From positions 62,001 through 126,000 of the forward strand of contig NZ_FOZK01000002.1 in the NCBI RefSeq assembly GCF_900114435.1: a DNA stretch of 64,000 bases. Reading direction: 5' to 3'. The notes under the pieces are model-generated. The model saw only the letters and a program-made list of their open reading frames with translations. It was not told the DNA's origin and made no database searches. Positions within the stretch are counted from its first letter, which is position 1; each line of letters opens with the position of its first letter. The stretch is from Halomicrobium zhouii. Lineage in GTDB: Archaea > Halobacteriota > Halobacteria > Halobacteriales > Haloarculaceae. The position numbers and the translations under genes are program-made. Shown here one piece after another: positions 28,363-43,369 of this stretch.

Positions 28363-28405
28363 CGATCCCTTTCAGAGATGACCTGCCGGTCGGAGTCAGA
28401 AGAAT

Positions 28406-28706
28406 GCCGCCTCCCCGATTTGAACGCCGGAAGACATTCCTGCTCGCTTCGCTGCGCGGGCTGTGACTTCCGAGCTCAAATCGGGTCGGTTAGATTTCTC
28501 CGACGACGGGCTCCTCGCTGTCGCTCGTCGCGTTGTCGTCGGAGAAATGCCGCCTCCCCGATTTGAACAGATGCCAGACGTTCCGGGCGTGCGGCTCACT
28601 TCGTTCGCCGTTCCGGGGCTGCGACTGGCGTGTTCAAATCGGCTCGGGAGCATTTTCACTGCTCACGGACTCGGTCGCTCCGCTCCCTCGTTAGTTCGCA
28701 GGAAAA
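28406..28706 (-). repeat. tRNA-Phe 3'-end copy array
   Basis: In gene direction, tRNA-Phe is followed by two further exact copies of its last 20 nt before the discriminator (GTTCAAATCGGGGAGGCGGC), at 28549-28568 and 28406-28425. Each keeps a T-rich trailer. Between copies lie degenerate inverted copies (28632-28657 and 28474-28499) and short hairpins. The hairpin at 28576-28629, beginning AGACGTTCCGGGCGTGCGGC, recurs in the tRNA-Asn and tRNA-Arg tails. The 5' part of the tRNA is never repeated, so these are not tRNA genes. Confidence 0.9.
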
Positions 28707-28780
28707 TGCCGCCTCCCCGATTTGAACGGGGGACAGCTCGATCTTCAGTCGAGTGCTCTCCCAGTCTGAGCTAAGGCGGC
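28707..28780 (-). tRNA. tRNA-Phe (GAA)
   Basis: A 74-nt cloverleaf. The acceptor stem GCCGCCT pairs with AGGCGGC, with discriminator A. The anticodon stem ACTCGA/TCGAG frames the loop CTGAAGA, anticodon GAA. The T arm is CCCCG TTCAAAT CGGGG. There is no intron. A T-rich trailer follows, then the 3'-end copy array. Confidence 0.97.
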
Positions 28781-36746: not shown

Positions 36747-36750
36747 CATG

Positions 36751-36861
36751 GGCCCTGCCGGATTTGAACCGCCTGAACTTCGCTCACGTCGTTCGCTCGT
36801 TCCGTGCTTCAAATCCTCTGGCAACACCGTTCGCTCGTCGCGTCCGCTCCTCGCAGAACGA
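36751..36861 (-). repeat. tRNA-CAU 3'-end copy array
   Basis: Downstream of the tRNA (lower coordinates) the 20-mer GGTTCAAATCCGGCAGGGCC recurs exactly at 36751-36770. Between it and the tRNA lies a degenerate inverted copy (around 36806-36826, CTTCAAATCCTCTGGC) and a short spacer with Ser/Leu-like CGCTCACGTCGTTCGCTCG character. It is the shortest of the four tRNA arrays and its hairpin is not clearly the common one. Confidence 0.8.
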
Positions 36862-36968
36862 TGGGCCCTGCCGGATTTGAACCAGCGCTCAACCGGTCAC
36901 CCATTCCACCTCGGAACCGAGCGTGGAAATATGAGCCGGTCGCTTTAACCAGGCTAAGCTAAGGGCCC
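36862..36968 (-). tRNA. tRNA with CAU anticodon and a 32-nt intron (Ile2 or elongator Met)
   Basis: The acceptor stem is GGGCCCT with AGGGCCC, discriminator A. The D arm, anticodon stem ACCGG/CCGGT and T arm GCTGG TTCAAAT CCGGC are all sound, with the loop CTCATAA giving CAU. A 32-nt insert after position 37 (TTTCC to GGGTG) is a typical archaeal anticodon-loop intron; removal leaves a 75-nt tRNA. The mature sequence resembles bacterial tRNA-Ile2 (CCTTAGCT, CTCATAA, CGCTGGTTCAA, CAGGG), so Ile2 with agmatidine-modified C34 is favoured, but haloarchaeal elongator tRNA-Met also carries an intron. It is not the initiator. Confidence 0.85.
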
Positions 36969-37064
36969 GTCTACCCGTGGTTTCTCGATACCTCTTCTTT
37001 AGCCTGTCGGCATCAGAGCAGGTGACGTGACTCGTCCAGTAGACCCCTGTCTGGGTACGTATTC

Positions 37065-37618
37065 GCCGCCAGGGCTCGAACACTGTGAGACGTTCCGGGC
37101 GTGCGGCCTCACTTCGTTCGGCCGTTCCGGGGCTGCGACTCACAAGCTCGAGCCCTGTCTGGGTACGTATTCGCCGGCGACGATGCTCGGAGCAGCAGCT
37201 CCTCGCGTTGTGGTCCCCAAGTACTCGCGGCTCACTTCGTTCGCCGCTCGTGAAAACGCTGGTTCCTCACTTCGTTCGGAACCAGCCAACACGCCGCCGC
37301 CAGGGCTCGAACACTGTGAGACGTTCCGGGCATGCGGCCTCACTCCGTTCGGCCGTTCCGGGGCTGCGACTCACAAGCTCGAGCCCTGTCGGATCGCGCT
37401 TCCACCGCTCACGGAGACGAGCACACGCTACGCGGTGCTCGTCGGTGAAGTTCGCGGAAGGAAGCGCCGCCGCCAGGGCTCGAACACCGAAAGACGGTCC
37501 TGCTCGTTCACTCCGTTCACTGCGCAGGCGTGCGACTTTCGAGCCCGACCCCTGCCGGGTAGCGTCTTTCGGAGTGCTGACCGCTCGCTCCGCTCGCGGT
37601 TTTGCACTCCGAAAATGA
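37065..37618 (-). repeat. tRNA-Asn 3'-end copy array (largest)
   Basis: In gene direction, the 20-mer GTTCGAGCCCTGGCGGCGGC from the tRNA recurs exactly at 37466-37485 and 37293-37312, and as a 17-nt truncated copy at 37065-37081. Degenerate inverted copies lie between them. The hairpin beginning AGACGTTCCGGGCGTGCGGC is present at 37088-37140 and, with small changes, at 37319-37371; a related hairpin (AAGACGGTCCTGCTCG...) lies near 37491-37541. Only the 3' part of the tRNA is repeated. Confidence 0.9.
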
Positions 37619-37691
37619 CGCCGCCGCCAGGGCTCGAACCTGGGACAACCTGGGTAACAACCAGGTGCTCTACCAACTGAGCTACGGCGGC
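37619..37691 (-). tRNA. tRNA-Asn (GTT)
   Basis: A 73-nt cloverleaf. The acceptor GCCGCCG pairs with CGGCGGC and the discriminator is G. The anticodon stem CCTGG/CCAGG frames TTGTTAC, anticodon GTT. The T arm is CCAGG TTCGAGC CCTGG. There is no intron. It is divergent from the CCA-transferase gene, 93 nt away. Confidence 0.97.
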
Positions 37692-37784
37692 TCGCATTCA
37701 CGGATAGCCCGAGTTGTTGTATAGGACTTTCGCTTTCCGTCCTGCATCGACACGCTTTCACGCACGCCGGGGAAATTCCGGGCC

Positions 37785-43063: not shown

Positions 43064-43136
43064 GTCCGGGTAGGGTAGTGGACTATCCTCTTGGCTTGCG
43101 GAGCCAGGGACCGGAGTTCGAATCTCCGCTCGGACG
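43064..43136 (+). tRNA. tRNA-Arg (GCG)
   Basis: A cloverleaf of 73 nt. The acceptor GTCCGGG pairs with CTCGGAC, discriminator G, with one G-T pair. The anticodon stem TTGGC/GCCAG frames TTGCGGA, giving anticodon GCG. The T arm is CGGAG TTCGAAT CTCCG. There is one more base than usual between the D and anticodon stems. There is no intron. A T-rich trailer follows, then the copy array. Confidence 0.93.
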
Positions 43137-43290
43137 TTTTCCTTCCACCAATCGACGAGCGACAGCGAGGAGTCCGTGTTGCTGGAGAACTCCATGGAGA
43201 TTCGAACACGACAGTCGCAGCCCCGGAACGACGAGCGAAGCGAGTCGCACGCCCGGAACGTCTGTCACCTGTTCGAATCTCCGCTCGGAC
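43137..43290 (+). repeat. tRNA-Arg 3'-end copy array
   Basis: The last 20 nt before the discriminator, GTTCGAATCTCCGCTCGGAC (43116-43135), recur exactly at 43271-43290, 155 nt further on. Between them is an inverted partial copy (GGAGATTCGAAC, 43196-43207) and the complement of the hairpin seen in the Phe and Asn arrays (43209-43262, with CGCAGCCCCGGAACG and GCACGCCCGGAACGTCT). The unit order (copy, inverted copy, hairpin, copy) is the same as at the Phe and Asn loci. Confidence 0.9.
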
Positions 43291-43369
43291 GTTTCTGCCG
43301 ACGCCACCCCGCGAGCGGCGGCGTCGGCGAAACTCCGTCCAGGCGTGTCCAGGTTCTGGCCCGGAGTCC

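What the first reader, a model, noticed from the sequence alone, without database searches (positions are those of the whole stretch)
37065..37691. tRNA-Asn has the longest array: two exact 20-nt 3'-end copies plus a truncated copy
GTTCGAGCCCTGGCGGCGGC is present in the tRNA, and again exactly at 37466-37485 and 37293-37312, and as a 17-nt copy at 37065-37081. Inverted degenerate copies and two near-identical hairpins (37088-37140 and 37319-37371) separate them. The array fills the 627 nt before the tRNA. The regular 150-230 nt spacing and repeated hairpins argue against random duplication and for an array-forming mechanism. It lies divergent from the CCA-adding enzyme gene.
Basis: partly seen in the sequence, partly recalled or inferred. 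Interest (0 to 1): 0.8.

Follow-up and report, generated by a model that had tools for sequence, protein, structure and literature searches.

The report
tRNA-tail repeat arrays behind haloarchaeal tRNAs
Behind about half of the tRNA genes examined in two haloarchaea (and in nearly all haloarchaeal species searched) sit short hairpin units that each carry an exact copy of that tRNA's own last 20 letters, apparently added and lost as whole units, in a layout so far known mainly as an oddity at one E. coli tRNA gene.

Summary
Behind tRNA-Asn (37619-37691, -) lie three units (154, 173 and 231 bp), each ending in a copy of tRNA positions 54-73. Such copies follow 21 of 53 tRNA hits in this genome and 23 of 41 in another haloarchaeal family. 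They are always downstream, in the same orientation and only from the 3' end. Each unit is: T-rich start, hairpin A, tRNA-specific inverted arm, conserved hairpin B, 3'-end copy. Hairpin B occurs in 231 of 242 haloarchaeal genomes and in none of about 240 other genomes of the phylum. Copy number varies between sister species (0/1/1/3 at tRNA-Asn), with a clean empty site. The E. coli tyrT/RtT repeats have the same layout without detectable sequence homology; strains carry 0-4 annotated copies. Best reading: miniature elements that insert precisely at the tRNA T-loop, each bringing a 3' end and a terminator. The loops match what I recall as unusually stable DNA, not RNA, hairpins. The enzyme is unknown; an IS200-type transposase in the same genome is not required. 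The CCA-enzyme link is not supported.

The parts
37619..37691 (-). tRNA-Asn(GTT) gene, head of the array
   Evidence: ARAGORN and Rfam RF00005, 71.1 bits
37465..37618 (-). unit 1 (154 bp): T-rich start, hairpin A, inverted arm, hairpin B, 3'-end copy
37465..37484 (-). copy 1 of tRNA positions 54-73, 20/20
37492..37538 (-). hairpin B core of unit 1 (AGTCGCAC...GACCGTCT)
   Evidence: model R1 match (L085 1674-1750)
37538..37546 (-). inverted copy of the tRNA T-loop (GGGCTCGAA), left arm of the palindrome
37555..37618 (-). hairpin A directly behind the tRNA (stem TTTCGGAGTGC/GCACTCCGAAA)
   Evidence: fold z = -4.96
37292..37464 (-). unit 2 (173 bp)
37292..37311 (-). copy 2 of tRNA positions 54-73, 20/20
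37319..37371 (-). hairpin B core of unit 2
   Evidence: (E 4e-26)
37378..37386 (-). inverted arm of unit 2
37061..37291 (-). unit 3 (231 bp), most distal and decaying
37061..37080 (-). copy 3, 17/20 (the 17-nt copy of the finding)
37088..37140 (-). hairpin B core of unit 3
37147..37155 (-). inverted arm of unit 3
28405..28706 (-). same kind of array behind tRNA-Phe(GAA) 28707-28780: two units, two 20/20 copies (28548-28567, 28405-28424)
36749..36861 (-). one unit behind the intron-bearing tRNA 36862-36968 (elongator tRNA-Met by synteny), 20/20 copy at 36749-36768
43137..43291 (+). one unit behind tRNA-Arg(GCG) 43064-43136, 20/20 copy at 43272-43291

Best explanation
These are arrays of a miniature, gene-less element that inserts by site-specific recombination at the T-loop of tRNA genes. 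Each unit supplies the tRNA's positions 54-73, so the gene stays intact, followed at once by a T-rich terminator. The previous 3' end is pushed downstream, and arrays grow at the tRNA. The core next to the crossover is a palindrome (tRNA-specific inverted arm, conserved hairpin B, 3'-end copy). It probably acts when folded on the tRNA-sense DNA strand, much as an integron attC site does. Shown: anatomy, precise boundaries, tRNA specificity, covariation, copy-number variation, a clean empty/filled site, confinement to haloarchaea. Inferred: insertion rather than precise loss, growth at the tRNA end, folding as single-stranded DNA, and a (tyrosine) recombinase acting in trans.
For: (1) Only positions 54-73 are ever copied. 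In G000, 21/53 tRNAs have the 3' 20-mer downstream, none upstream, and none has its 5' or middle 20-mer; in G094 23/41 against 0 and 0. Copies of other tRNAs: 34/2494 and 0/1436. (2) The left edge of identity is fixed at G52/G53|T54 in 81 of 81 close copies, never more than 6 nt further. The right edge lies within 3 nt of position 73 in 55 of 81. That is the span expected of an element that crosses over in the T-loop and must restore the tRNA. (3) Empty/filled site: G025 has tRNA-Asn followed by TTCTCCCGTCGTCG; sister species G039 and G052 have tRNA, one unit, the 3'-end copy, then the same TTCTCCCGTCGTCG. (4) Copy number varies: Asn 0/1/1/3, Lys 2/3, Gln 1/3. (5) Every copy is followed by T (3.1 of 8 nt against 1.1 background). 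(6) Copies decay with distance: mean mismatches 0.59, 1.15, 1.89. (7) The inverted arm matches the unit's own tRNA in 58/70 units, other tRNAs in 6/335; hairpin B pairs covary (231 two-sided cells against 72 shuffled and at most 37 slid). (8) Caps are almost all cGNAg, cGNABg or cGNYAg on the tRNA-sense strand (94, 27, 23; GNRA only 6; about 0.5 each expected). (9) Hairpin B in 231/242 haloarchaea, 0 of about 240 other genomes of the phylum. The R1-negative haloarchaeon G069 also has 0 of 30 tRNAs with 3'-end copies.
Against: No recombinase is linked to the arrays. All 23 genomes tested, with or without units, have tyrosine recombinases, and no autonomous relative carrying a gene was found within about 18 kb of 23 tRNAs. 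The empty site could be a precise loss between the 20-nt repeats. The arm fits each tRNA although hairpin B is shared among tRNAs, so a unit cannot simply hop from one tRNA to another. Displaced ends should decay, yet 45 of 66 first copies are perfect. Covariation was counted on an alignment fitted to the model. Loop chemistry is indirect evidence for DNA and rests on my recall of the literature.
Confidence: 0.47

Rival explanations
1. No mobile element: an ancient terminator/hairpin segment behind tRNAs that multiplies by unequal crossing-over between the 3'-end repeats and is kept alike by gene conversion in polyploid haloarchaea.
For: Recent tandem doublings and higher-order repeats exist: two identical 120-bp units at G000:C3:278951, the order PQPQR at G094:3791364 and PQP at 315197, three near-identical units at tRNA-Gln in G039. 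Hairpin B variants are shared between tRNAs of one genome.
Against: It does not explain the fixed left edge at T54 and the frequent right edge at position 73, the tRNA-specific inverted arm, why 5' and middle parts are never copied, or the absence from other archaea of the phylum.
Confidence: 0.22
2. A functional RNA: the units are transcribed as structured 3' trailers or small RNAs, like RtT RNA from the E. coli tyrT operon.
For: Strong covarying structure; sequence conserved across genera; the E. coli counterpart is annotated as an sRNA processed from the tyrT transcript.
Against: Each 3'-end copy is followed by a T-rich stretch that should stop archaeal RNA polymerase. Loops avoid the RNA-stable GNRA type, 6 against 23 GNYA (p = 0.001). 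Presence varies between sister species.
Confidence: 0.17
3. An IS200/IS605-type single-strand element (REP/RAYT-like, or the haloarchaeal PATEs), moved by a Y1 transposase that recognises the hairpins.
For: Hairpins with conserved mismatches and stable DNA loops; PATEs of IS605 type are known in Haloquadratum (PMC3119063).
Against: G036, G172 and G193 have 18-19 hairpin-B hits each and no PF01797 match; G069 has ten (partly broken) PF01797 matches and no units. PATEs cause no target duplication (PMC3119063), whereas these units are flanked by 20-nt direct repeats and confined to tRNA ends.
Confidence: 0.08
4. Leftovers of ordinary proviruses or plasmids that integrated at tRNA 3' ends and were then deleted.
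For: tRNA 3' ends are common archaeal integration sites that leave partial copies (PMC8371274; PMC9897764).
Against: The same conserved module separates the copies in more than 200 genomes, first copies lie 78-159 nt away, and two core patterns have no match in 2.9 million viral contigs.
Confidence: 0.05

Closest known systems
E. coli tyrT/tyrV distal repeats (RtT/rttR RNA, tpr)
   Same: Tandem 178-bp units behind a tRNA, each ending in the last 19 nt of that tRNA; an inverted copy of the tRNA tail (GGGGAAGGAT) before the final ATCCTTCCCC; between them hairpins with cGCCAg/cGTCAg caps flanked by tandem GA, and GAA loops; T-rich start of each unit; strains with 0 to 4 annotated copies.
   Different: One tRNA locus in one bacterium against about half of all tRNAs in haloarchaea; no detectable sequence homology (no RtT match); the copy starts at about T-loop position 58 instead of 54 and includes CCA; processed into an sRNA according to its annotation.
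Integron attC cassette arrays
   Same: As an analogy: array next to one fixed site, apparent polarity, palindromic sites with imperfect stems that could act as folded single strands.
   Different: No genes in the units, no integron integrase identified, target is a tRNA T-loop, outer arm changes with the tRNA.
tRNA-targeting integrative elements (T-loop/3'-end att sites)
   Same: Shared block runs from within the tRNA to its exact 3' end and leaves the tRNA intact (general rule in PMC8371274, PMC9897764).
   Different: Units of about 100-230 bp without genes, in tandem, at many different tRNAs of one genome.
REP/BIME and haloarchaeal PATE elements
   Same: Short palindromic repeats with stable loops.
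   Different: Confined to tRNA 3' ends with a 20-nt direct repeat; a Y1 transposase is not needed in the same genome.

Membership tests
E. coli tyrT/RtT-type tRNA-tail repeat (by layout) | tandem units behind a tRNA, each with a copy of that tRNA's 3' end | tested here: met
E. coli tyrT/RtT-type tRNA-tail repeat (by layout) | inverted copy of the tRNA tail inside each unit | tested here: met
   58/70 units; E. coli unit folds with a 9-10 bp outer stem
RtT RNA (Rfam family) | sequence/structure match to the Rfam model | tested here: not met
   no RtT match in the window at gathering score nor in 37000-37720 at E up to 5
RtT RNA (Rfam family) | stable RNA processed from the tRNA transcript | not testable with these tools
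   no expression data; T-rich stretch after each copy argues against
tRNA T-loop integrative element | identity block from the T-loop to the exact tRNA 3' end | tested here: met
   81/81 left edges within 6 nt of T54; 55/81 right edges within 3 nt of position 73
tRNA T-loop integrative element | occupied and empty sites in relatives | tested here: met
   tRNA-Asn in G025 against G039/G052; direction of the event not settled
tRNA T-loop integrative element | encodes or is linked to an integrase | tested here: not met
   no gene in the units; no second distant copy within about 18 kb for 23 tRNAs; tyrosine recombinases in all 23 genomes tested, so no link can be drawn
Integron attC array | attC core consensus and integron integrase | not tested
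   only compared from memory; TTCRAAT does not fit my recollection of the attC core
IS200/IS605-type element (PATE, REP) | Y1 transposase available in the genome | tested here: not met
   no PF01797 in G036, G172, G193 although they are rich in units
CRISPR array | short identical repeats with unique spacers of even length | tested here: not met
   spacers are the conserved hairpin module

The most novel reading that the evidence does not exclude
Haloarchaea, and E. coli at tyrT, carry an undescribed integron-like system: gene-less cassettes whose palindrome folds as single-stranded DNA and is recombined into the T-loop of many different tRNA genes, each cassette fitted to its own tRNA by a matching inverted arm.
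Probability: 0.25. Interest if true: 0.9.

Novelty: new variant of a known kind. Interest (0 to 1): 0.75.

Why it matters
The E. coli tyrT repeats have (as I recall) been known since the late 1970s as a single unexplained locus. Finding the same layout behind about half the tRNAs of two genomes, and its core hairpin across nearly a whole archaeal class, makes origin and function testable. There are many independent arrays, empty and filled sites, one conserved core to use as bait, a natural negative genome, and genetically tractable haloarchaeal hosts. If insertion is right, tRNA ends in haloarchaea are constantly rebuilt by tiny elements. If the folded DNA strand is the active form, it would be another prokaryotic system of that type besides integrons and IS200/IS605.

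Tried and rejected
CCA-enzyme or RNase Z specificity: rejected as cause, since arrays occur at tRNAs in all contexts. CRISPR-like array: rejected. Provirus remnants: rejected as the main cause (no viral matches; no distant copies). Y1/IS200 transposase in cis: rejected. Tyrosine recombinase presence against absence: uninformative, because all 23 genomes have some. Rfam for known RNAs: only the tRNA. ORFs across the array (217, 177 and 164 aa): judged incidental, because they run through repeats and hairpins on both strands; no homology was tested. E. coli strains with only the tRNA match (H35, H36): they carry other genes behind tRNA-Tyr, so they are not clean empty sites. Paper searches for a prior description of haloarchaeal tRNA-tail arrays or for the hairpin sequence found none, but the library lacks most subscription journals. 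My statements on DNA loop stability (cGNAg, cGNNAg, cGNABg), on Williams' T-loop class and on the early tyrT work are from memory.

Full report
WHAT IS THERE. The window is from a haloarchaeal genome (G000, 4.25 Mb, 6 contigs). On the tRNA strand the array reads: tRNA-Asn, unit 1 (154 bp), unit 2 (173 bp), unit 3 (231 bp). Each unit ends with a copy of tRNA positions 54-73 (20, 20 and 17 of 20). Inside a unit the order is always the same: a T-rich stretch right behind the tRNA end or copy; hairpin A; a short inverted copy of the tRNA T-loop; hairpin B; the 3'-end copy. The inverted arm and the copy pair with each other, so hairpin B sits on a long imperfect palindrome whose right arm is the tRNA tail (folds z = -3.9 and -4.3).

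IT IS GENOME-WIDE. I took all 53 tRNA hits of the genome. 21 have their own 3' 20-mer (at most 3 mismatches) downstream, first copy 78-150 nt away, always in the same orientation. None has it upstream, and none has its 5' or middle 20-mer copied. Dissimilar tRNA ends give 34 of 2494. All four tRNA genes in the window carry such units. In a complete tRNA survey of a genome from another family (G094) it is 23 of 41 tRNAs, control 0 of 1436, with up to five copies. Some tRNAs without a whole copy have one split by extra hairpins (for example C1:1442091, C2:22902, C2:256724, C2:930690), so these counts are low estimates.

HOW FAR IT REACHES. A covariance model of hairpin B, built from 15 units of this genome, rings in 231 of 242 Halobacteria genomes, 69 of 74 genera. 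In a draw from the whole phylum it rings in 50 of 53 Halobacteria and in none of about 240 other genomes. Of the 30 best loci from the class search, 28 have a tRNA gene within 600 nt upstream on the same strand and 26 have 3'-end copies. As a check without the model, an exact 20-mer of the core was sought in about 85,000 species. All 31 hits are haloarchaea (Haloarcula, Halorhabdus, Natronococcus, Halorubrum and others), 27 of them within 450 nt behind a tRNA. One negative haloarchaeon, G069, has neither model hits nor copies (0 of 30 tRNAs). Its main contig has the length published for Haloquadratum walsbyi C23 (3,148,033; PMC3119063), which suggests its identity. A genome outside the Halobacteria (G274) gave 2 of 22, one of them the neighbouring tandem tRNA gene.

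DYNAMICS. At tRNA-Asn beside cca, species of the genus carry 3, 1, 1 and 0 copies. G025 is empty: tRNA, then TTCTCCCGTCGTCG. G039 and G052 have tRNA, unit, 3'-end copy, then the same TTCTCCCGTCGTCG. The event is exact to the base. Since G025 branches outside G039+G052, gain in the pair and loss in G025 are both possible. tRNA-Gln has 3 near-identical units in G039 and 1 in G025; tRNA-Lys has 2 and 3. Copies further from the tRNA carry more mismatches (0.59, 1.15, 1.89), as if units were added at the tRNA. Arrays such as PQPQR show that duplication of existing units also happens.

WHAT THE BOUNDARIES SAY. Identity between copy and tRNA never extends more than 6 nt left of T54 (81 copies). On the right it ends within 3 nt of position 73 in 55 of 81; the others run on into a shared hairpin A. 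A T-loop start and a tRNA-end stop are what an element leaves that crosses over in the T-loop and must rebuild a working tRNA. Each copy is followed by T (3.1 of 8 nt against 1.1 elsewhere in the units), as a unit needs if its copy is to become the new end of the gene. Neither slippage nor an RNA function predicts both edges.

WHAT THE HAIRPINS SAY. Across 67 distinct sequences 95.8% of cells pair, 231 cells change on both sides (shuffled 72; slid at most 37), and AGTC...GTCT with a T.T mismatch is nearly invariant. The alignment was fitted to the model, so this leans towards the structure. The caps are of one kind: G-A, a pair, then GNA, GNAB or GNNA, then the pair, G-A. Counts on the tRNA-sense strand are 94, 27, 23 GNYA and 6 GNRA, against about 0.5 each expected. 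From memory these are the unusually stable DNA loops (cGNAg, cGNABg, cGNNAg), whereas RNA favours GNRA. I infer that the sense DNA strand, not RNA, is the form under selection.

ENZYME. Not found. Unit-rich genomes without any Y1 (IS200-type) transposase exist (G036, G172, G193), which speaks against REP/PATE-type mobility in cis. Tyrosine recombinases occur in all 23 genomes tested, with and without units, which is uninformative. The units have no genes, and no gene-bearing relative was seen. A weak point of the insertion model is that the arm fits each tRNA while hairpin B is shared among tRNAs. Either each tRNA keeps its own lineage of units with gene conversion of hairpin B, or the arm is made during insertion.

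COMPARISON. From memory I thought of the E. coli tyrT repeats and tested them. NC_000913 has three 178-bp units behind tyrV, each with the exact 19-nt tail, a GGGGAAGGAT inverted copy, CGAGCGCCAGCGAG or CGAGCGTCAGCGAG caps and GAA loops, and a T-rich start. In a spread sample of E. coli genomes 0 to 4 RtT copies are annotated. The layout is the same, but no sequence homology is detectable. I therefore call the haloarchaeal arrays a new variant of the tyrT kind by layout, not members of the RtT family.

VERDICT. The pattern is widespread, conserved, dynamic, and as far as this library shows undescribed. The mechanism is a reasoned inference, not a demonstration.

Noticed in passing
G000:C3:589304-589700 (L052, L249): Behind a tRNA-Leu-like gene, hairpin B is flanked not by tRNA arms but by a 26-bp direct repeat TGAGCAATCGCGCCAGCGATTGCGAA that is itself a hairpin, as if the module had landed in another hairpin and duplicated it.
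   Followed up: partly
G000:C1:1442091, C2:22902, C2:256724, C2:930690 and C2:467229 downstream: 3'-end copies are split between the T-loop part and the acceptor part by one or two extra hairpins, yet the acceptor part still ends exactly at tRNA position 73.
   Followed up: no
window 36862-36968: Intron-bearing tRNA (32-nt intron) missed by the default ARAGORN run but found by Rfam; relatives have an elongator tRNA-Met at this place.
   Followed up: partly
alignment A2 (loci L085-L114, L253-L282), hairpin B core: The long form of hairpin B contains two direct copies of CGCAnnCCCGGAACG about 23 nt apart, so it could also be a pair of protein-binding sites in double-stranded DNA.
   Followed up: no
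G000:C2:253014-258675 (L040): Dense cluster of about a dozen tRNA hits, several low-scoring and non-standard, like a tRNA cluster of a virus or plasmid; it carries hardly any of the units.
   Followed up: no
L284, L286 (E. coli strains 4/1-1 and TUM2826): One tRNA-Tyr with no RtT repeats and a desaturase gene starting 17 nt behind it, as if an island had replaced the array.
   Followed up: no
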